This document shows, in pieces, positions 3,344 through 47,635 of a stretch of 64,000 nucleotides of DNA. Every line of letters starts with the position of its first letter. Position 1 is the stretch's first letter. This DNA is from Oidiodendron maius Zn (taxonomy: Eukaryota; Ascomycota; Leotiomycetes; Myxotrichaceae): positions 1,612,001 to 1,676,000 of the forward strand of contig KN832870.1 in assembly GCA_000827325.1 (NCBI GenBank), in the 5' to 3' direction. A program made the position numbers and the translations under genes. The notes beneath the pieces are model-generated. The model saw only the letters and a program-made list of their open reading frames with translations. It did no database searches and was not told where the DNA came from.

Positions 3344-4435
3344 ATGTCGGCCCTCCTTAGCAAGTCATATGTCGACAGCGTCTACATCCCGTCCGGTCTG
3401 CTGGTCGTTGGATGCTTGATTGTGAAGCGCGAATGGGTCCCGTATGCTGTCGTAGTTGCAGCACTACTCTCAGGCTACAGACTGCTCGGGGGAACAAGTA
3501 GGCTTTCCCCGCAGACAACACTTCAAGGTAGCTAACAGCCTCTCCAGAAGCTCAAACGGCTCTCAAACCCACTGAGTTCCAAGAATTCGAGCTCACGGAA
3601 AAGACAATTATCTCCCACAATGTAGCAATGTGAGTCTTGAGGCAGACAAAAGGCGAGACTTGGTGCTCACGAAATTTAGCTACCGATTCAAGCTCCCATC
3701 TCCCACCGCAATTCTTGGTCTGCCAATCGGACAGCATATCTCAATTGCAGCGACGCTGCTTCAACCCGACGGCAACTCGAAGGAGATTGTGCGATCCTAT
3801 ACACCCATCTCTGGAGACCACCAGCCAGGGTTCTTCGATCTCCTGATCAAGTCGTACCCCGCCGGCAACATCTCGAAACACATGGCGTCCCTGGTCGTGG
3901 GACAAAGTATCAAAGTCCGAGGTCCTAAGGGAGCCATGGTCTACAGCCCAAATATGGTTCGCCATTTTGGCATGATCGCGGGAGGAACCGGAATCACTCC
4001 CATGCTGCAGATTATCCGGGCTGTGATCCGGGGTCGCGCTGCCGGTGACAAGACGGAGATCGACCTGATCTTCGCTAATGTCAACCCGGAAGATATCCTG
4101 CTCCGCGAGGACCTCGATCAGCTCGCCAAGGATGACAAGGGATTCAGAGTGCACTACGTCCTCAACAACCCGCCTGAGAATTGGGAGGGAGGAGTGGGTT
4201 TTGTGACTCCTGAGATGATCACCGTACGTATATTCTTTATATTCCTCTGGACAAGTGTGATTTGAGTACTGACGATTCCTCAAAGAAATGGATTCCTAAG
4301 CCCGCAGCGGATGTCAAGCTCCTGCTCTGCGGACCCCCACCTATGATCAGTGCGATGAAGAAGGCGTCCGAGAGCCTAGGGTTCGCTAAGGCACGACCAG
4401 TCAGTAAATTAGAGGATCAGGTGTTCGCGTTCTAG
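3344..4435 (+). CDS. cbr1: NADH-cytochrome b5 reductase (CBR1 type)
   Basis: Four exons (3344-3497, 3548-3629, 3680-4223, 4286-4435) give 309 residues, the usual length for fungal Cbr1. A hydrophobic N-terminal anchor (about residues 12-45) precedes the FAD domain with RSYTPIS near residue 116. The NADH domain carries GGTGITP near 179 and CGPPPM near 275, and the protein ends in the typical DQVFAF. The family transfers electrons from NADH to cytochrome b5 for fatty-acid desaturation, ergosterol synthesis and diphthamide formation, at the outer mitochondrial or ER membrane. All three introns are GT..AG and about 50-62 nt, and the summed exon length is in frame. Nothing looks broken. Confidence 0.92.
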
Positions 4436-7093
4436 AGGATTGACTGCATAGATGCAAGGCAAGATGCGGTACGAAGAGATTGTGGATGCTGGTTGGAGGA
4501 ATCTGGGACGTCCGGTACATGCATCAACTTCGGAAGAGGAGTGCTAGTAACTAAAATGGGTTTACCTTGGCTTGAAGTGCTTGCAGATAATGGAATATTT
4601 CCCACTTGGGAGGGTTTGTAAGACAACTTAGGCGCGGCGCTGTCTGGAAACCAACATTAAATGAGGAAAATTCATCATTCTTCCACTTCTTCGACTCCAA
4701 TAAATTCCATTGGATCGACCGGTTCCCATCTAATCCTGACCGTTGGTTCGATCCGTATCAATTACCACAGGAACAATAAACTATAACAGTCTGCATCCTT
4801 TTACAACTCCCACGCCTTCGGGGTGCTAAATCCGCTACAAGCGGCCATTGTTAAAGTTACAAGGTTTTCTTTGATATAAATATATATACTAGTAAGTATT
4901 ATGAGAGAGTACTTATTATAGGTCTGACAGCTCGCCCACTGAATGAAATTCTGAGAGAGACACTAAGCTTTGTTTCCTTACCCCTCCTAAGACCTTATTT
5001 GCTAGAATCATTAACTCGACAGCCCCCCATTATGCGCATAAAATAAGATACCATTTACATGACCCCAGCAATCCCCTACACGCGAATGTCATATTTATAT
5101 GCCCGTACGAACCATAAAATTTGCGGGAATATAGAGGAATATTTATGTCAATTACCTGACGTAAAACCGTCAATGGAGGGATGTGATACTTCAATTGTAA
5201 AAGATTGTACAGTGATCCTTAAACCGCAGTGAATAGCGGGAGATAAATGAATCTACTGCTCCCAAAACCTGTGTGGAATGGGAGGATACAAAGAAGGTAG
5301 AACTTTCTTGTTTTATGTTGAATGGTAAGAGGCATGAGCATATATTGAGGACAAGAGTAACTACTAAACCCGCTTTAGCTTCCAGTTCCTTCTTGACCCC
5401 AGGGAGAACTGCACGCACTTAGCCAGTTCACTATTCCATCCTCCTGCATCACTCTCCGTCCCTCTTCAATAACATACCTTCCGGAGATATGATTCGATTA
5501 CAGCACACCGGAGGAAGAGAATATTCCCATCTATCATGATAGCAGTTAGGACTAGTGCACATCCAACAGTCATAGCCACAGCTCCGTTACAGGGCCTGTT
5601 GGTGCCTCGAGGTTTAAAAACATGCAATCATTCTCGAACGTGGCTGGATGCACTTCTAGTCCAATTGCCTAAGCCCTTATTAAATCCTGTATTTAATTTA
5701 CACTCTTTCAACCTGGCGATATGTCATTGCGTCTGACTTTACGTTCATACGCTCCCTGTTTGTGTGCGCCTCATGAACATGTTCCATCGGTCCTCGCAAA
5801 TTAGCTGCGCTGAGATGATGCTTTCACCATGTTGAGTCAGATATCACTGTAAACGTGGCAGCCTCATCACGCCGGTGTTAATGACAGAAGGGCATTGTGT
5901 AGAGCACGTTCATTGCTGGCCGCGTTACGCCAAATGCAGTGAGTTTTCGTCATGACGAAAAACGGGACTACGTGAGCATCGTAGGTGCTTGGCAGCTCTT
6001 CTCAGACATTTTGCCACGCGGGAATCCGAAATAGGAGCTGTCGAAACCCTTTACGCGTGGTGTGGGAGTACAAAGCATGGACGACAATGTGGGTCTGAAG
6101 GATGGTCAGCGATCTCCAAGACACATACCCTTTTCCGTGCAAGGCACATAAGGCGACGTATGTGGTAAGACTAGAGTCTGGAAGACTTGAAACTTGGCTT
6201 TTGTTGCAGTGTGAGATTATATGGATTTATTTTCTTGTCGGATGGTCTTGGTTTGCCAAAATGAAGATCAAACCGTGTCGTTAATAACGTTGCTCATTAG
6301 GCAGGGAAAGGCCAACCGGTAACTCCGGCAGCAATCGAAATGGGGATCTCAACTAAACTTATTACCGCTGACTGGTGTATACTCCTCGTTCTGTGACCCG
6401 AAAGCCCGGGAGGAGCTGCATATAAGCTCTAACAAGTGGAAAGATGATCCCGTGTGGCGTTGACTGTCACAGGCTGCGAACCGAAGCCTTCTTAAGGGAA
6501 ATTCTACTCCGCCGTGCTGATATTCCGATGTTTATTGATGAGGGGGAGGCTGTACGGTTCACCACGTTTTGAGTTCGATGCAGACGCAAATGTAACAGTT
6601 GGAGACTTTTTGGCTGAGCGCTGAACGAATCACAACGCCGCTAATTATTAGCTGACCCTGCAACCACGGCTCGTATCCGTATTTGGAGATATCGTAGCCG
6701 GTCATCCAAGCGGATATATATGGGCAAAGTTTCCGGTGATCAAAATGTTCCGCTGTAGCACATAGCCATGTTTTCATGATGGACGACTCGAGAGGCCTTA
6801 ATCTCACGACTTGTACGACCATATAGCGAATACTATGGCTCTAAGGTATCCTACTGTTCAAACATGGACAGCATATATAGAGCGTTGTCTTCGGCTATAA
6901 TCTCTGACTTCATATCCTCCCTCTGGGTGGAGCTTCCATGGTAACCAGCTTATGATTGTTGACTTTTTATTAATATCCGTCTTTGCCCTTCGCAGAAAAT
7001 TCGTCTCAACGAGCTAGAGAGACTATTATTCTCCCTAGGTTTTAGGAGAGATATCTTTACAAGACACTAGTCTTAAAAACCAGCATTTTCCAA
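4436..7093. other. Gene-poor AT-rich intergenic region
   Basis: I found no coding sequence with family resemblance in these ~2.7 kb. AT-rich patches occur at about 4660-5160 and 6960-7090. An 18-bp perfect palindrome lies at 5944-5961 (separate entry). The last few hundred bases should contain the promoter of the velvet-domain gene. Confidence 0.5.
5944..5961. repeat. 18-bp perfect palindrome
   Basis: The sequence TTTTCGTCATGACGAAAA is identical to its reverse complement. It lies in a gene-free stretch about 1.1 kb upstream of the velvet-domain gene. It could be a dimeric transcription-factor site (the core resembles bZIP half-sites) or chance. Confidence 0.6.
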
Positions 7094-7892
7094 ATGACTT
7101 CATCTAATCAACTTCCTATCTCCAACTTGTTGAGTGAGAATTCTAGGTACGTGTAAGTTATCATTGATATTTGAATACATTTTCTCATTCTGAAGTGGCC
7201 ACTCCCATCGTCCTCCGCCGGTATACAGCATTACAGTCCGCCAACATCCACTGTCTGCCCGCGCTTGCGGATTCAGCGAAAGAGATCGTCGAGTCATTGA
7301 TCCTCCACCTATTCTTGTCCTGGAGGTCCGTGACCCGGGGTCAAGCGAGGAAGAAATCGTCGCAAGGCTTCGCTCGTCATTCTATGTGGTATATTGTTCA
7401 CTGTGGAATCCATGGAGTGACGAAGAGGATAATATAATGCCTTCGTCATCAAGGCTGCCTCAGCGACGGCTGATTGGGACACTCGTCGGGTCGCATTTTT
7501 ATGGCAGAGACGACAGCAACAAAGAGCAATGCTTCTTCTACTTTTCAGACCTCTCTGTGAGGACTGCAGGTACCTATTGTCTGAAGTTCGACCTTGTGGT
7601 GTTGGATGCCTGGCGAGTGATGACCCGATCCAGTCTTGCTGTCTCTGCCACGACCAAGAGTAACGTCTTCGCAGTGCACAATGCCAAAGACTTTAAGGGC
7701 ATGCGACCAAGCACCGATTTGACAAGATGTTTGAGAGCCCAAGGATGTCTTATCCCAGTTAAAAAGGGGAGTGCAAAAGCGGGTGCTTCCCATTCACCAG
7801 AGGCGGGAAGCGACGAAGAAGATAATGAAGAAGGCAGTGGTAATGCGGATATTGGAATCCAAGATTTGCCAGAAATTGCCCAGAGCCGCTAA
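7094..7892 (+). CDS. Compact velvet-domain protein, VosA/VelC-like
   Basis: Two exons (7094-7146 and 7196-7892) give 249 residues. The velvet domain fills residues ~28-215: VYSITVRQHP, then CGFSERDRRVIDPPPIL, then FYVVYCSLWNP, QRRLIGTLVGSHF, CFFYFSDLSVRTAGTYCLKF, VHNAKDFKGMRPST and LRAQGCLIPVKKG. All are recognisable velvet motifs, closest in my memory to VosA/VelC. Velvet proteins are fungal DNA-binding regulators of development, spore viability and secondary metabolism that act as homo- and heterodimers in the nucleus. A short acidic tail follows (SDEEDNEEGSG). VosA and VelC are much longer, with big Pro/Ser-rich extensions that are absent here. The frame is intact and splice sites are standard, so it may be functional. 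It sits alone in an AT-rich island beside a CTP synthase ruin, which suggests a recent or mobile paralogue. Confidence 0.85.
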
Positions 7893-8280
7893 GAAGAATT
7901 TCCCTTTTATTGCTTGTGAAATGCATTTCGGGAATTATAGGCATATGAGGACTACTAGATAGAGCCGGAATAGATCTGGAAGAGGATATAACGCAACGGG
8001 GAAACGTTCAATAGTTTGTGCCACAACAGACACTTGTCCGAATAATTGGCATTCAAATTCCTATTCACGTCTCAGAAGCCGTTCTATCTGATTGCATCTT
8101 TACATGTGGTTGTCCATCTTACGGTGAGATCGCTGTCGAACTGCCCCACCAAAACGCAGAGAGCCAAAAACGGTTTAACGCAGCGCGTAGTTCCAGCTGA
8201 AATGTTCCAACTTCGCAAGTCAGAAATTCCTCTCTTGCAAAAGCCAGGACAAGCACCATACATGTAGAAAAATCTCCAAA
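7893..8280. other. Intergenic between velvet gene and CTP synthase remnant
   Basis: I see no gene here. It contains the 3' flank of the velvet gene and a stretch immediately before the remnant ATG that could be the old CTP synthase leader. Confidence 0.4.
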
Positions 8281-8968
8281 ATGAAGTACGTTCTCGTGTT
8301 TGGCGGTAATAGCTCTGTATTTTTCAACTTTAAGAGCTAATTATGTGGACTGGCAATTTTCCTGCCGTGTAATAATCCTGGGGATCACGGTCATGGGTAA
8401 ATCCTTATCCTTGACGATGGTGGTGAAGTCGACCTCGACCTCGACAACTACAAACGCTATCTCAACATCACACTTATGCGCGAGAATAATATCACGACCG
8501 GAACGATATTCCCGCATGTAATCGAACGTGTACGCCGTGGCAACTTCTTGGAATATCTTTCTAGTCGTGATATTGTTTGCCTGGGCACGCAGCTTGCCGT
8601 CATCGAATTCGCGCGCCATGTATACGACCTTCCGAAGGCAAGTTTGATTGAGCTGTACGGCAATGCCCAGACCCAGTGCTTATTTTTATGCCTGAAATCG
8701 ATGAAGTCAACATCTGGCACAATGAGATTGGACATGTGTCTGACTCTTCCAGGAACGCTCGGAATTGTCCAGTGTCCCCCGACTCTGTAGCGAGGAGGAA
8801 GAAATCTACGGTAAGCATAGACACCGGTATGAGTTTAACCCAGAATACATTGAACGCCTCTCCAAGGGCGGTTTGCAATTTGTCGGGAAAAATGACAAAG
8901 GAGAGCGGATGGAGATCATAGAACTTAAACACACACCCTGGTTTGTGGGTATGCAGTTCCATCCATAG
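8281..8968 (+). pseudogene. CTP synthase (URA7-like) pseudogene, heavily deleted
   Basis: Fragments match CTP synthase in order. The N-terminus MKYVLVFGG (8281-8307) is followed by the synthetase-domain block LDDGGEVDLDLDNYKRYLN, then ITTG (8410-8560). The same frame then jumps directly into the glutaminase-domain block CLGTQLAVIEFARHV (8581-8625), so roughly 300 codons are missing. A shifted piece around 8690-8740 recalls MPEID..GGTMRL, and the C-terminal block runs EEEIYGKHRHRYEFNPEYIE to MQFHP (8786-8966), stopping before the catalytic Glu. The nucleophile-loop sequence CLGMQ has become CLGTQ. The real enzyme makes CTP from UTP and glutamine. With more than one frame change and large deletions this copy is dead; the functional gene must lie elsewhere. 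Confidence 0.85.
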
Positions 8969-9268
8969 CACCTATTTCAGGTTTTGCAGCCGAGTAAGTC
9001 GTGCCTGGGATTCGTGGCTGTGGTGCTTGGAGAAGGTTAGATCTGATATCACTCGGGATGAGGAAGTTAACCGCGTTGATGGAAACCTATCAATGGCTTG
9101 ATCGAAATCAGGATTTGAGTGGGTATTGTTATATATAAGTATCATAGTTACGCAGCTTCGGCGGCTCGGATAGATAAGAGAAGTAAATATATCCTAGTCC
9201 ATGCAGCTTCAAATGTCGCATGTTCCTATTTAGATGTATTGTTCTTTCCTCAACTTCTCCGTCCAATC

Positions 9269-11339
9269 TCACAGCTTTGCCCTCCCAACTTTGATCGACT
9301 CCCAGCTGACTCCATCTAGTCGCTGATACGTCTTACCGTTTAACCAGTACAATTTATCCGTGTTTCCTTCTTCAGTTTCAACCCAGCCCAATTTCAGTAG
9401 TTCCTGTTTAGCCTTCTTGAAGGTAGCATTTGATTTGATCCTAAACAAACATTAGTCCACATTATGTCACTCGAAAGACGCGTACTCTTTTGTTATCCGC
9501 ACAAGGCGTGGCATAGCATAAGATGGAAGACCGGTCTTTTTGAGAGCAATGTAAAGATTGCTCATAAACTTTTCATCTGAAGGTGATTCTAGAGTGATCG
9601 CTGCCGCTCCAGCTTGTCCATCGTAACTGGCATTATTAGTAGTGCGTCTTTGAAATCTCCAATTTTACTTGTCTTACCTAGGAAGCTTCACGCCATATAC
9701 GACAGCATCTAGTACGCCAGAAAGTTTGGCGATGTGGTCTCTCACCTCGCCCGCACTCACATTTTCTCCCTTCCACCTGAATGTGTCGCCCATTCGGTCG
9801 TGGAACTGGATCCATCCGTAAGAATCACTCAACAACAAGTCTCCCATCCTCTGGAAACAGTCACCCTTGGCGAACACATCCGGAAGAAGTTTTTTATCGC
9901 TTGCCGCAGAGTTATTCAGATACTCGATGAGCAGGTTTTTATTTTTGACTCTTCCAATAGCTTCTCCAGCTTCTCCTGATCCTACCCTGACGCAAAATCC
10001 CGTCTTAGGATCCCGATACACCTCTTCTGTCAGAGGATCCACCTTCACAATAAACGTGTCGTTCTCCAAATACCTGCGAAGAATTCCTGCGAACCCAATT
10101 TTCCCCGCACCAGCAGCAGACGTTCCGAAGTTATCAAACTTCGCTATACCCTCCGTCGATCGATAGAACTCTCTGATCTCAGGGATGCCGAACCGCTCAC
10201 GGAACTTCTCCCATATCTCTCCCCGGAGGCCGTTTCCACTTGCCACGATGCAGGAATGCGCGCGGTCATAAACTGAAGGGGAAGCGGACACTAGATAGCG
10301 ACATAGCTCGCCCACGTAAAGAATTCGAGTAGCACGACTCGCCACGACGTCTTCCCAAAAGCGAGAAGTTGAAAATTTTCGAGCCAGGCAGACGGTGGAC
10401 GAGCTGCCAAAGGAGTAAGAGATGCCGGTAAAGAGGGCAGTTGCATGGAAGAGAGGAAGGGCCGAGTAAGTGCGAAGCGGGAAGTACTTCATCGGGTCCC
10501 TGGCGTCATGCGGAAGAGTAGTGCTGGTTGCAGCAAGCAAGAAATTTCGTACAGCGCATGCTTTGGGTTTGCCCGTAGTTCCGGAGGTGTATATAAGGAA
10601 TGCTACATCCTCGAGCGTCCCCTTTGCACACGGAACTACAACTTCTGGGATGGAAAGATTGTTCAGATTTATGACGGAGACCCCAGAGGCAGTATATAAT
10701 GGTGCATCCTGAAATGATGAGAGATTGATAGAATAATGCTTCAAATCACTTTGGATGAAGCCGGCCAGATCCAAAGTGGAGATGACCGTTTTTGCAGTCG
10801 AGACATCCAGGCAGTGTTTCAAGGTCTCGTCTGAGAGTAAGTTAGTCTATGTGGAATTATGGAAGAGAGGGAGGAGAAACCTCGAAGATTGGTATTTATC
10901 AAAGCAGCCACGGCTCCTAACTTTGAAAGCGCCAGAATCGTAATTATCGTCTCAGGAGAATTCGTCGTGAACACAGCAACGAATTCTTTATTTGCGACTC
11001 CATTTTCACTCAAAAAGGCAGCAAAGCGATCGACTTCTAGATGGGCCTGTTAGCCATTTTCACTTAAGAATCTCTCTGTTTGAAATACTCACTATTTTTT
11101 AGCTCCCCGTAGGTCCAAGTTCGGCCCTCAAACCAGACCACTTCAGCCTGACTATCTGCCAACTCAAAGATGTGATGTAGCGTGCATCTATCACCTAAAG
11201 TCCCCAGCCACTGCTGGAATCGGATGAGCCATTCTCGGTCGTAGCTCAACTGCCTTAAATCATTCTTAATTCCGAGTTTGGCATTCAGATAAGCTGTGGT
11301 AGCCAGAGCCGCCGCCGAGACCAGAGCGGGAGTCGCCAT
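9269..11339 (-). CDS. Very-long-chain acyl-CoA synthetase / fatty acid transporter (FATP/Fat1 family), peroxisomal
   Basis: Five exons on the minus strand (11339-11093, 11036-10881, 10830-9678, 9626-9486, 9440-9269) give 622 residues, normal for the family. A hydrophobic N-terminus (MATPALVSAAALATTAYL) is followed by the AMP-binding core: IYTSGTTGKPKA near residue 215, FYRSTEG, and the adenylation signature with YGWIQFHDRMGDTFRWKGEN. The enzyme activates long and very long fatty acids to CoA thioesters. The protein ends GRAKL, where AKL is a PTS1 peroxisomal signal, so I infer action at peroxisomes in beta-oxidation or in acyl activation for secondary metabolism. The second intron (10831-10880) uses a weak GTTTCT donor. 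The reading frame is intact. Confidence 0.88.
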
Positions 11340-12004
11340 TTGCAGCTCGCTTCCAGGGGACGTAGGAACGATAAATAGTCTGAAGGAAGCAGATTACTGG
11401 TATTTGTGTATGAGAAGGACTAGATTAATATAACTATTATTCCGCGCCTAGTTTTATGAATCGTCCCTTGATCTGTAGGAAATGAAAAGCGAGATTGGGA
11501 GCTGAATGTTGGCACTGCGGGAAGTTTGGTGGCTTTGACATTGCCGATTCCACGGGCCGTGGATTTGATACATGGCCCAGAGGCGGGGAAAGGATGCTGG
11601 GTGCGTTACATACCCAGGTGTGCGAATTGCCGAGCTCGTCGCTAGACTAATTATTAATATAATTATCTAGTCTATTATTATTATGCCCTTAAATCGTCAG
11701 CCCATGCGATGGGTACTGAAGGCCTGCCTCTACCGTTGGAGATCGGGTAAACTCGAGGCGGCCGCTACGGCGCTCTTAGGTCTATCTATACCTAAGATAG
11801 CGCCGTCTCCAATCGCAGGAGATGGCAAATGATATATTAGTAAAGAATGAGTCAATCATACCCTGAGTAATTCATTGCTTTCATATCTAATGTTTAGGTG
11901 CTGATGCTAGTACAGTACAAGTATTTAACATACATGATACTCCCCCAATCGGAACTCTTGCCTCGCACAACTTCTTCGCAACTCCTGCGGCTCGGTCTCT
12001 TTGC
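11340..12004. other. Intergenic with AT-rich block and hairpin
   Basis: Upstream flank of the acyl-CoA synthetase and 3' flank of the kinase pseudogene. A near-palindromic AT-rich block lies at about 11643-11675 and a strong GC-rich hairpin at 11736-11812 (separate entry). I see no gene. Confidence 0.5.
11736..11812. repeat. Long imperfect hairpin
   Basis: Left arm 11767-11781 (ACGGCGCTCTTAGGT) pairs with right arm 11790-11806 with a two-base bulge and an 8-base loop. An outer pair, TTGGAGA at 11736-11742 with TCTCCAA at 11806-11812, extends it (sharing one base with the inner arm). It is not in a gene. It could be a decayed foldback element, or a structured RNA if transcribed. Confidence 0.6.
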
Positions 12005-12992
12005 TCATTGAAATTTCCGTAGAATTAGTAGCTTCAATTTAACAGTTCCCTTCCTTCCGCTCGGGGTCATATATTTCACATCTGCAAGAATCCTCTCATA
12101 GAGATCCGTCAGGAGGAAGTCATAGTCATATGTCAAGACACACAGTGGGTGGACTAGCAGGTCTGAAGTGGCAGGTCTTGTTCCAGGTTTGCTATGCGAA
12201 TCAGCAAGTCAAAGTCTTCATTACAGATGAAGACTTAATTGGAGGATACAGGAGCTAAAAGGGAGTGGTGCTTACGTAGCCAAACAGGCTCGAACAAAAT
12301 TCTGACAATCTGGGAATATCTCTGTCCCCGTCTTCAGGAATACCAACGTTGTTACCAGGCTCCTCACTCATGATTTTAATATCATTATCACTGGGTAGTT
12401 GACCCATACCCATCTCTAGGACAATAACGCTGAGGGACCAGACATTGCCTTTGTTGTCATAGTTTTCATTTGGATGGCTAGCAACCTCAGGTGATTGGAA
12501 TGTATGAGTAAACTGAGAATTGTCTGCTACGTGCGGCGTACCACAGTCAGCAATCTTGACCACACCGTCGTAGCCAACGAAGATATTGCTGGAGTTCAAG
12601 TTATTGTGTACCACTCCCTGACTGCAAGTGTTCAAGACCCTGAACGATTTGGCTTGTGAACGAACGTATGATAGACTCCTCAAAACTGCGGTACTGCAGC
12701 ACGCAGCAGGAAATAGTTCTATGACCAAGGACATATTCAGAGAGGATGAAAAAAGGCGGAGTCTCTATGCGTGTAGGCCAGATGTGTGATGAGGTTCGGG
12801 TGGCGAAGAGTTTGGCCTGCAGGATATCAAGGCTGCTCCTCAAGTCATCCAATCCAACTGGCCGTCTTCTAGCTTCCTGGTTTCTCTAACCGCGATAAAT
12901 TCACCAGTTATGTTGTTTATGCCGATATAGTCAGTTCCGAATGCCCTCGTGCGAAGCGGGTAGCCGCACGAGAACTCAATGGCGCTTGCCAT
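12005..12992 (-). pseudogene. MAPKKK/STE11-like protein kinase pseudogene
   Basis: Successive minus-strand frames read as one kinase. The N-lobe runs from the ATG at 12992 (GYPLRTRAFGTDYIGINNIT, then IAVRE). The αC/β4 region shows HPNLITHLAYTH, then SFEESIIRSFTSQIVQGLEHL. The catalytic loop VVHNNLNSSNIFV replaces the usual HRDLKxxNIL, and KIADCG replaces DFG. SPEV, VWSLSVIVLEM and a C-lobe end PGTRPATSDLLVHP follow, reaching a stop at 12005 after one plausible intron (donor at about 12277). At least four frame changes separate these blocks, so it cannot encode one protein. The HRD aspartate and DFG phenylalanine are also lost. It most resembles STE11/BCK1-type MAP kinase kinase kinases. The intact parent is not in this window. 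Confidence 0.75.
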
Positions 12993-13594
12993 GGTTTGGT
13001 GTTAAGAGAGATTCAACAAATCAATGGTAATGGGCCGGCTGAGGGAGATGTAATTCGCCTCTGAGCAAGAAAGCTGTTTGAGCAAGAACGGTTTGTCCAA
13101 CTTGCGGATAACGAGGTAGGGCGAGAGCCAGATGTAGAGGGCTATATTTCGAGGAAGGCATGATGGCGCCGACATACAGGAGGCACTGCGCTATATCAAA
13201 GCACAGCGTGAACTTCCTAGTATATAGTATCTATGTGTTAACATATCCTAAGCTCCTTTGGAGGTCCACCGTCCCTTGACAAGGGAGGGCGTTATGTGTA
13301 TTGTATGAAGCTCGGCCGGATAAAAAGGGCGCCGAGTTCCATGTCGTGCGGCCGCTTGGCCAGCTTCTCCTTACCAATAAGAATTTGCGACTCCGAATAT
13401 CCTCGTCTTGACCACATCTATTCAAAAAGAATCCGATCCGCGCCGTTCTGACGTTCACACGTTCAAACGCCCCCGATGTCTACATGGCCCCCCAAGCTCT
13501 GACACTCCACCCACGACAAACCTGTTGATGTCGAGATTATTCGGGGCGGCCCGCCTCCCAGCATTGTCCCTCTTCACCGCTTAGGCTTATCCCA
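12993..13594. other. Intergenic upstream of pik1
   Basis: This stretch of about 0.6 kb should hold the pik1 promoter; no gene is visible. The leader just before the ATG is moderately GC-rich. Confidence 0.4.
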
Positions 13595-34671: not shown

Positions 34672-36344
34672 ATGGATCTGACCACGAAGTCGGCCGCTCT
34701 CAAGGCACATTCGGCGACGACTCAGATAGTGATGGGCGTGTCAGCCTTCCTTGTTGTATTTTATCTTATCAAATTCTTCCTCTCCCGTCCTGAACGATTG
34801 AATTTTCCTATTTTCGAAGCCTCCCCCAGTGAATATAAATCTGCAGTGGTAGAAGGCAGTTTGAAAGTACGTACTCTCTCCCGGCCCATTTGTGCACGCT
34901 GACTTTATTTTAAAGTATCCAGATACTCCGTTCATCTTAGGAGATGTCGTCGTCCTCCCAAAGTCCACTTTGGACGAGATACGAAATCTTCCAGAACATC
35001 AGGCCTCCTTCAACAAGATGGTCCGAAAGGTTATGCACTCTAAGTATACTAACTTTGGGGCAGATCATGTCGAGCTTATCAGTGCAGTTAAGGTGGACCT
35101 CACTCGTCACATTAATAGCTACCTAGATGGTCTCCAGGACGAACTTCGATATGGGCTAGACAAAGAGCTAGGACCCTGTGAGGACTGGACATCTGTGCAC
35201 CTCTACTATCAGTTGACTCGTATCGTTGCCTTCCTGAGTGGCCGAGTATTCGTGGGGCTTCCTCTAAGTCGCGAGGAGGAATGGATCGACGCATCTATCA
35301 ATTATACACGGGACGTGATGATGGCACGTGAGGCTGTCGAGAAGCAGCCTGCAATCATGCGCCCTTTCTTTGCACGATTTCTTCCAGAAGTTAAGTGTGT
35401 CAAGCGTTATGGAAACCGTTGTGCCGTCCTCTTGCACCCTTGATCGAGGAAATCTTGACCCGCGATGCTGTTGGGAAATCGTACGAAGAGGATCTAGAAG
35501 GAAGTAGGAGGGGTACAATGATATCTTGGATACTCAAGTATACTACTGATAGATCCATTCGAAGAATAGCCGATGATCAGATGACCTTAACTTTTGCAGC
35601 AATTTTCACCACCACGGCCGCGGCTAGCCAAGTAATCTTCGACCTTGTTTCTCGTCCGGAGTATATCAAGCCTTTGCGCGATGAAATCCAGCAGGTCATC
35701 GAAGAAGATGGCTATGACAATATCGGTGGCAAGTCTCATAAACTAAAGAAACAGAGCATCCCGAAGCTTAAAAAGTTGGATAGCTTCCTGAAAGAAAGCC
35801 AGAGGTTTTCGCCCCCGACCGTCACCGGAATAGGTCGTATTACGACTGCTGCTCTTAAGCTCTCGACTGGACATACCATTCCCAAAGGCGTCCACATCAC
35901 ATTTCCTGCGTACGCAATTTCCATGTCGGCTCAATCAATGGTTGTGCCATCTGACAACACAGAATCTTATGTCACACCGCATGAATTTGATGCCTTCCGC
36001 TTCTTCAAGCTTCGCGCTATGGAAGGTAACGAAAACAAAGTTTGTTTAGATACTTCTCCAACAGCCGGAACTTAGAGCTGATAACTGCATAGCATCAATT
36101 CGCAACCGCCTCTCCAGACTCGATACACTTTGGCTACGGACTACATGCCTGCCCTGGCCGGTTCTTTTCCAGTAACGAAATTAAGATTGTCATGATCGAG
36201 TTGCTGCACAACTGGGTTATGAGACTCAAAGGTGACGTATGTGGAATTGGAGGCTTGGATAAGAGACCTGAGAGCAGGCATGTTCGGATGGCGATCTCAC
36301 CAAATGAGTCGGCAGAGATTGAATTCAGAAGGCGGAGAGCTTAG
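34672..36344 (+). pseudogene. Cytochrome P450 with one frameshift
   Basis: Exons are 34672-34866, 34916-36039 and 36093-36344 (about 523 codons). An N-terminal membrane anchor (VMGVSAFLVVFYLIKFFL) is followed by an oxygenase body with the helix-I region FAAIFTTTAAASQVIFDL, helix-K ESQR (ExxR), a PERF-like EFDAFRF and the heme loop FGYGLHACPGRFF with its cysteine. The overall style recalls fungal terpenoid/ent-kaurene-oxidase-type P450s. The long exon needs a shift of one base between 35390 and 35425: the frame ending LPEVKCVKRY resumes as CRPLAPLIEEILTRDA. Everything else is intact, so it is either a young pseudogene or a single-base sequence error. No other biosynthetic genes lie beside it. 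Confidence 0.75.
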
Positions 36345-46188: not shown

Positions 46189-47635
46189 ATGGTATTACCC
46201 CCATTTCAAGAAACACCCCAAGCGCAGTTGAAGGAAGAAGTACCCACGACGCCGCTCAACATGTCTGCTGTAGCTGTCCAGGCCCCGTCTCTACTCCCGT
46301 CCCCGAGAGACATGATGTGGGAGAGCAGGCGGGGGCCAGAACTCCTTTCACGGTCGAGAGGAGAGCCCGTCCTGACCGAGAAGGTCGAGCTCCCGTCTAT
46401 CCGACAGGTATGTCACTCTACGTAGACTTAGAGAGCACATCCTGACAGGTATAGGCCATCCCGGAGATCGACCATGTGCGAAGTGTGCGCCCGCAGCCAG
46501 GGAGCAGACCTAGCCCAGCGTCCTACTCTCCTACGTCTCTGGCTCCTCCGCATGAGCATACCCACTCTCCTTCTCTACGCAAGCGGAGACGACTCTCAGC
46601 CGAGGACGACTTGGATACGAGAGAGCAGATGTCTTCAAGACTCCACAGGAGTCCACCACGATCATCTTACCAGCAATGCCCAAGCACAACTGCATCACCT
46701 GGGGCTGGGTCACGTCGAGCGAGCGAGCTCTCCATAGCAGAATCCTGGGCCAGCTCTACCCGGACCAGCCCGCATACTACAGCACGAGGACCTCCAGCGA
46801 TCTCACCACATTTTGACTCTTCAGCCATCAGTCGATCAGACTGGCGCCCACAGCTGCCGAGCCTTCCCGCCCTGACGTTCGATCGGACGACGGTGCCGGC
46901 ACCACCAAGGGCTCCCGGCAGTTGGAGCGAACACGGCTTTGATGCCACCTCCCGGCCAGCGGCCCAGCCATTACAACAGCAACCTATCTCACCTACCGAC
47001 CCAGCTCCGGCATATCCGCCTGGATCAACTTATTCGTACCAGCAGCCCCGAGGGCTCTCCTTCTCGAGGCCGTCAACGCACAACCAAGCACCATTCTCCA
47101 CCATCCATCCTTCAGGCTTTGTTGGATACCCGTATCCTATGGAGACAGGAGACATGTCAGGCGATGGTAAGCAGCGGAAACGTCGGGGGAACCTACCCAA
47201 GGAGACCACGGACACGTTGCGGGCGTGGTTCCGAGAGAACCTGGGGCATCCGTACCCGTCAGAAGAGGAGAAACAGCGCTTGATGAAGGCGACGGGCCTG
47301 CAAATGAGTTAGTTCTACTTTCCTGGCTCATTTGTCTATTGACTAACGTCCTTCCAGATCAGATCTCAAATTGGTTCATCAACGCCCGTCGACGGCACCT
47401 CCCGAACATGATGAACACGGCGAGAGCAGCGGCCGGGGCCCGAGCGGCAGGAGATGGCAAAGATGGCAATGACAGCAAGGGTGAGCTCAACCTCAAGATC
47501 GAGCCTGGGGACTCGAAAAGGGAGAGGAGTACCAGGCCGCGAAGCGAGGGAGAGGGTAGCAGCTACGAAGACGACTACGCAGGGCTGGGGCGATTGCACG
47601 GGGGACAGGGCATGGTGAAGAGAGAGAGCATCTGA
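46189..47635 (+). CDS. TALE-class homeobox transcription factor
   Basis: Three exons (46189-46407, 46455-47307, 47358-47635) encode 449 residues. A Pro/Ser-rich N-terminus includes a basic RKRRRLSAEDD patch. The homeodomain lies at about residues 309-375: KQRKRRGNLPKETTDTLRAW, then HPYPSEEEKQRLMKATGL, then NQISNWFINARRRHLP. The three-residue-extension PYP and WFINARRR mark the TALE/KN class, related to fungal Pho2/Tos8/Cup9-like regulators. The second intron splits the homeodomain inside helix 3 (codon 'N' of NQISNWF), as in many fungal TALE genes. The tail is acidic and Ser-rich. It probably regulates development. The gene is isolated between 5.75 kb and 3.1 kb of non-coding DNA, which suggests complex control. 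Confidence 0.9.

What the first reader, a model, noticed from the sequence alone, without database searches (positions are those of the whole stretch)
7094..7892. Compact extra velvet-domain regulator in an AT-rich island
The protein keeps all velvet blocks I can recognise and an open frame with one clean intron, but is only 249 residues. VosA and VelC, the closest relatives by motif, are far longer because of extensions missing here. It lies alone in gene-poor DNA next to a decayed CTP synthase. It could be a fifth velvet member that acts as a short dimer partner or competitor of VosA/VelB.
Basis: partly seen in the sequence, partly recalled or inferred. Interest (0 to 1): 0.85.

Follow-up and report, generated by a model that had tools for sequence, protein, structure and literature searches.

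The report
Short VelC-like fungal velvet gene
This is an intact-looking fungal gene for a small protein of the velvet family, regulators of spore formation and fruiting, that keeps the DNA-binding and pairing core but lacks the long extensions of its relatives; extra family members are already known in other moulds, so it is a modest find unless it proves to act as a blocking partner.

Summary
The gene is real. Two exons (7094-7146, 7196-7892, + strand) encode 249 residues that match Pfam Velvet at 9.2e-53. The protein keeps the three arginines essential for VelB function and the glycine and leucine needed for velvet dimerisation. It lacks the marks of VosA, VelB and VeA that I could test. Its layout, a velvet domain followed by a short tail, is that of VelC without the N-terminal half; no upstream exon for that half was found, though the codon test is weak. 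Best reading: a compact VelC-type regulator that works as a dimer partner. No VelC sequence was available, so the class is inferred, not shown by a tree. Whether it is an extra gene or the genome's only VelC cannot be told: no genome is held. Extra velvet genes are published: VelD in Aspergillus section Flavi and a second VelC in Wangiella dermatitidis. The dead CTP synthase next door is confirmed; 'AT-rich island' is only weakly true. A competitor role is possible but untested. Interest is modest.

The parts
7094..7146 (+). Exon 1 of the velvet gene (17 codons plus 2 bases). With the alternative donor at 7153 the exon ends at 7152.
   Evidence: open from ATG; a stop lies 17 codons upstream in this frame.
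7147..7195 (+). Intron, 49 nt, GTACGT...AAG; alternative donor GTAAGT at 7153 (43 nt), same frame
   Evidence: It is needed because exon 2 has no ATG before velvet motif 1.
7196..7892 (+). Exon 2: the velvet domain (protein residues about 26-208) and an acidic 41-residue tail, with stop codon
8401..8968 (+). Remnant of a CTP synthase gene, internally deleted and frame-broken; neighbour, not part of the velvet gene. It may begin at about 8281 by eye, but the piece 8285-8521 gave no family match.
   Evidence: CTP_synth_N E 6.2e-15 and GATase E 7e-9 in separate pieces.
4436..7093 (+). About 2.6 kb without a recognised gene, upstream of the velvet gene; may hold its promoter and leader (inference)
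   Evidence: no + frame of more than 87 aa; 1 of 22 blocks above zero on the + strand; 10 pieces: no family above its cut-off.

Best explanation
A functional or recently functional velvet regulator of the VelC type, cut down to the velvet domain plus a short acidic tail. Shown: the domain is nearly complete and keeps the residues that mutation work in VelB found essential in the DNA-binding region and for dimerisation. Inferred: it binds DNA through the arginine loop and pairs with another velvet protein, most likely VosA (a known partner of VelC) or a VeA-type protein. Having no basic cluster typical of a nuclear import signal and no long extension, it would enter the nucleus with its partner and tune that partner's action in sporulation or fruiting, not act alone as a strong activator.
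For: Pfam Velvet E 9.2e-53. Best solved relatives: VelB 5.7e-29, VosA 2.3e-21, VeA 1.4e-10, at 35 to 43% identity in the aligned parts, similarly far from all three. VelB R71, R80, R81 correspond to R40, R49, R50 here; VelB G240 and L331 to G112 and L193 (papers). Of the 15 VelB residues alanine-scanned in PMC13389560, 11 are identical here (counted by hand on the alignment). VelC layout: velvet domain at 252-501 of 524 in A. nidulans and 245-426, at the C-terminus, in Fusarium proliferatum; here about 26-208 of 249. The domain length of about 183 is nearer the VelC mean of 195 than VosA 166 or VelB 294. [quoted passage not shown] A velvet-only fragment, VosA 1-190, dimerises and binds DNA.
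Against: No VelC sequence was at hand, so the class rests on exclusion against one VosA, one VelB and one VeA, on layout, and on a motif I recall (DRRVIDPPP as VelC-like). The defining long N-terminal part of VelC is absent. Of 26 columns identical in VosA, VelB and VeA, 7 are changed here, and of 51 columns identical in at least two of them, 20 are changed, among them E142A and R146C in a conserved block and P185K. The codon signal is weak, the branch site is weak, and there is no expression evidence. A mean VeA domain length of 194 fits equally well. The single-sequence structure model was too poor to test the fold.
Confidence: 0.62

Rival explanations
1. It is the genome's only VelC orthologue, which in this lineage has a short N-terminus; nothing extra.
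For: VelC-like layout; about 70% of 1,320 Pezizomycotina genomes have four velvet genes, so an ordinary VelC is the default.
Against: Mean VelC length is 432; the missing half would be unusual. A dead CTP synthase copy beside it would fit a duplicated segment, though that is only suggestive.
Confidence: 0.4
2. It is an extra, lineage-specific velvet gene (VelC duplicate or VelD-like) that acts as a short partner or competitor for VosA/VelB.
For: W. dermatitidis has an extra VelC; only one of its two copies has orthologues in the fungi compared. Most section Flavi aspergilli have a fifth velvet, VelD. Dimerisation residues kept.
Against: Not testable without the genome. VelD falls in the VosA clade, while this protein lacks VosA's K37.
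Confidence: 0.35
3. A young pseudogene: a velvet copy that has lost its N-terminal half and perhaps its promoter but not yet its frame, like the CTP synthase beside it.
For: Weak codon signal, changed conserved residues, decayed neighbour, weak branch site.
Against: No stop or frameshift in 249 codons, all five function-critical residues kept, an intact splice frame, and RIP-type indices that are not raised here.
Confidence: 0.2
4. The gene is longer: upstream exons encode a normal VelC N-terminus and the 249-residue model is a truncated annotation.
For: VelC proteins carry about 245-250 residues before the domain; 2.6 kb of unassigned DNA lies upstream. The codon test that speaks against it is weak, and one upstream block (5996) scores 0.04.
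Against: No + frame longer than 87 codons there; 21 of 22 upstream blocks are below zero in all three + frames; no family match above its cut-off in ten pieces.
Confidence: 0.1

Closest known systems
VelC (Aspergillus nidulans AN2059 and orthologues)
   Same: Velvet domain followed by only a short tail; similar domain length to the VelC mean; one intron in the A. nidulans gene
   Different: Lacks the N-terminal part of about 250 residues; no VelC sequence could be aligned here; intron 49 nt against 164 nt
Extra VelC of Wangiella (Exophiala) dermatitidis (HMPREF1120_02378, by its place in the paper's Table 2)
   Same: An additional VelC-type velvet gene (published precedent)
   Different: Its sequence and length were not available; whether the present gene is extra is unknown
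VelD of Aspergillus section Flavi
   Same: A fifth velvet member outside the standard four
   Different: VelD belongs to the VosA clade; the present DNA-binding loop is not VosA-like
VosA (PDB 4n6q)
   Same: 35% identity over 167 aligned residues; continuous velvet domain
   Different: VosA K37 is S here, K39 and K42 are R; no long C-terminal extension here
VelB (PDB 4n6r)
   Same: Best solved match; the CGF...DRR loop and LIG block are close
   Different: No long disordered insertion inside the domain; IDPPP instead of ITPPP

Membership tests
Velvet family (PF11754) | Velvet domain above the curated cut-off | tested here: met
   180.1 bits against 25, E 9.2e-53
Velvet family (PF11754) | Arginines equivalent to VelB R71, R80, R81 | tested here: met
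   R40, R49, R50 (PMC13389560, abstract and section 33)
Velvet family (PF11754) | Dimerisation residues equivalent to VelB G240 and L331 | tested here: met
   G112, L193 (PMC12077163, abstract)
VosA | DNA-binding lysines K37 and K39 | tested here: not met
   S and R at these places (PMC3876986, passages)
VelB | Disordered insertion inside the velvet domain (99 residues in A. nidulans) | tested here: not met
   The two VelB halves align to query residues 27-106 and 108-212, one residue apart
VeA | Three extra residues in the loop between ARACG and DRR, as in A. nidulans VeA | tested here: not met
   Three-residue gap in the alignment; compared with one VeA only
VelC | Velvet domain on the C-terminal side after a long N-terminal part | tested here: not met
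   Short tail as in VelC, but only about 25 residues precede the domain against about 245-250. So it is called VelC-like, not filed as VelC.
VelC | Placement in the VelC clade of a tree | not testable with these tools
   No VelC chain among the PDB hits and no confirmed relatives in viral or prokaryote collections
VelD | Placement inside the VosA clade | not testable with these tools
   No VelD sequence at hand; the loop residues argue against it

The most novel reading that the evidence does not exclude
A velvet-domain-only duplicate that kept DNA binding and dimerisation but lost every regulatory extension, and so works as a natural competitor of full-length VelC/VosA dimers, comparable to short inhibitory partners in other dimeric transcription-factor families.
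Probability: 0.17. Interest if true: 0.55.

Novelty: new member of a known kind. Interest (0 to 1): 0.27.

Why it matters
Velvet proteins act through which partner they pair with. A natural velvet protein reduced to its core would show which functions need only the domain and could reveal partner competition as a regulatory device. If it is simply a short VelC, it only extends the known length range of the family.

Tried and rejected
Searching for relatives: two scans of viral contigs and two of prokaryote genome contigs, with the protein and with a four-member alignment, confirmed no relative (0 of 12, 74, 82 and 33 pattern matches), as expected for a fungal family. Own genome: none held. Searching papers for velvet motif strings to recover a VelC sequence: 0 papers. 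Structure prediction of exon 2 alone gave mean pLDDT 40.6, too poor to use, so no fold search was made. Identifying the organism by its kinesin: of 155 matches 60 were shown, by molecule name without organism, and none named Aspergillus; the genus remains unknown. VosA-type binding sites (motif recalled, up to 2 mismatches): 22 in the window against 19.3 expected, none in 4436-7093. RIP-type mutation: the composite index is negative in all 16 four-kb blocks (thresholds recalled). Repeats that would mark a mobile element: only short, imperfect pairs and no tandem array. tRNA and Rfam scans of the window: nothing. Rejected: that the 3' end is missing, since the Pfam match runs to 235 of 237.

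Full report
What is there. On the + strand two exons, 7094-7146 and 7196-7892, join in frame to a protein of 249 residues. Pfam-A gives one family, Velvet (PF11754), at 180.1 bits and E 9.2e-53, in two stretches, the best reaching position 235 of 237 of the profile. Among solved structures the matches up to E 1 are VelB (5.7e-29), VosA (2.3e-21), VeA (1.4e-10) and two antibody chains at 0.72 and 0.88, which are noise. The intron is needed, because exon 2 has no ATG ahead of the first velvet motif. A second donor, GTAAGT at 7153, is also in frame and nearer the usual consensus (recalled); the protein would then have 251 residues. The branch site is weak.

Is it more than chance? Length alone is not: 2 of 300 Markov sequences of 9 kb reached a frame of 232 codons. 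The homology is what counts. Over the whole gene the true frame scores best of the six in codon use (0.043 bits per codon against -0.08 to -0.26), below the eight genes used for training (0.086 to 0.222, scored on themselves). In 120-nt blocks of exon 2 the true frame is above zero in 4 of 6. This is mild evidence of coding and leaves room for low expression or relaxed selection.

Anatomy. Aligned to VelB (numbering checked against the residues named in the papers), the three arginines essential for VelB function, R71, R80 and R81, are R40, R49 and R50 here; the dimerisation residues G240 and L331 are G112 and L193. The papers are PMC13389560 (abstract and section 33 read) and PMC12077163 (abstract and section 5 read). 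Of the 15 VelB residues scanned in the first paper, 11 are identical here; L61, G76, K78 and P82 are I, S, R and V. Of 26 columns identical in A. nidulans VosA, VelB and VeA, 19 are kept and 7 changed; of 51 columns identical in at least two of them, 31 are kept and 20 changed, including E142A, R146C and P185K in the dimerisation part. The protein ends in a 41-residue tail with 10 acidic and 2 basic residues, and a simple pattern found no basic cluster typical of a nuclear import signal.

Which velvet? Identity is 35.3% to VosA (59 of 167), 42.5% and 39.0% to the two halves of VelB (34 of 80, 41 of 105) and 35.6% to the first part of VeA (42 of 118). VosA's K37, important for DNA binding (PMC3876986, passages), is S. 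VelB's insertion inside the domain (PMC3876986; PMC12614781, passages) is absent. The three extra loop residues of A. nidulans VeA are absent. What remains among the standard four is VelC. VelC has its velvet domain on the C-terminal side: 252-501 of 524 in A. nidulans (PMC3938535, section read) and 245-426 in F. proliferatum (PMC12474422, passages). The domain here, about 183 residues, is nearer the mean of VelC (195) or VeA (194) than VosA (166) or VelB (294) (PMC10845976, section read). I also recall DRRVIDPPP as a VelC-like motif; no call confirms this. So it looks like VelC without its first half. No VelC sequence could be obtained, so the class is inferred and a tree was not made; because the long N-terminal part is absent I call it VelC-like and do not file it as VelC.

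Is the first half hidden upstream? Between 4436 and 7093 no + strand open frame exceeds 87 codons. Of 22 blocks of 120 nt, 21 score below zero in all three + frames and one, at 5996, reaches 0.04; since the velvet gene itself scores weakly, this test has little power. Ten pieces gave no family above its cut-off (two weak hits below it, SCAMP 0.0035 and pPIWI_RE_X 0.049). A missed long exon is unlikely; several small exons are not excluded.

Surroundings. Upstream lies a reductase gene (3576-4262 and on; FAD and NAD binding); downstream a dead CTP synthase, deleted inside and broken in frame, then an AMP-binding enzyme on the - strand. GC at 7001-8000 is 0.469 (18 of 64 blocks lower); over 4001-13000 it is 0.465 against 0.503 elsewhere. 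RIP-type indices are not raised, so repeat-induced mutation is not the evident cause of the decay. No repeats typical of a mobile element were seen.

How it probably works. The velvet domain alone can dimerise and bind DNA, as VosA 1-190 does (PMC3876986, passages). [quoted passage not shown] velC deletion in A. nidulans lowers fruiting-body number and raises conidia (PMC3938535, abstract and passages). In Podospora anserina a velC mutation instead sets off barren fruiting bodies without fertilisation (PMC10819945, passages), so the direction of effect differs between fungi. By analogy this protein most likely pairs with VosA or a VeA-type protein and shifts the balance of velvet dimers. Shown: domain and residues. 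Inferred: DNA binding, partner, direction of effect.

Novelty. A fifth velvet member is not new as such: VelD occurs in most section Flavi aspergilli and falls in the VosA clade (PMC10845976, passages and sections; PMC9497164, passages), its deletion lowering aflatoxin or kojic acid (PMC11355368, passages). W. dermatitidis has an extra VelC, and only one of its two copies has orthologues in the fungi compared (PMC4059230, passages). No title or abstract start in the listings names a short VelC, and searches listed nothing; none of these searches asked for that exactly, most of the listed papers were not opened, and only open-licence papers are held. Whether this gene is extra cannot be told, since no genome is held for the window. 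I file it as a new member of a known kind, the velvet family.

Noticed in passing
8401-8968: A CTP synthase remnant: a stretch matching residues 59-107 runs straight into a weaker one matching from about 398 on, and the next piece (matching about 445-517) lies in another frame.
   Followed up: yes
8485-8577: Inverted repeat inside the CTP synthase remnant, 28-nt arms, 86% complementary, 37 nt apart.
   Followed up: no
34865-36072: Two overlapping open frames; the second matches cytochrome P450 (E 2.8e-17), the first matches no family but looks by eye like the part before it, so the gene may be frame-broken or have an unrecognised intron.
   Followed up: no
12258-12764: A protein-kinase fragment (Pkinase profile positions 116-200 of 263) on the - strand, perhaps a partial gene.
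   Followed up: no
46455-47632: A homeobox gene (Homeobox_KN, E 2.7e-10, first 27 of 40 profile positions) whose remainder seems to lie in an overlapping frame, probably after an intron.
   Followed up: no
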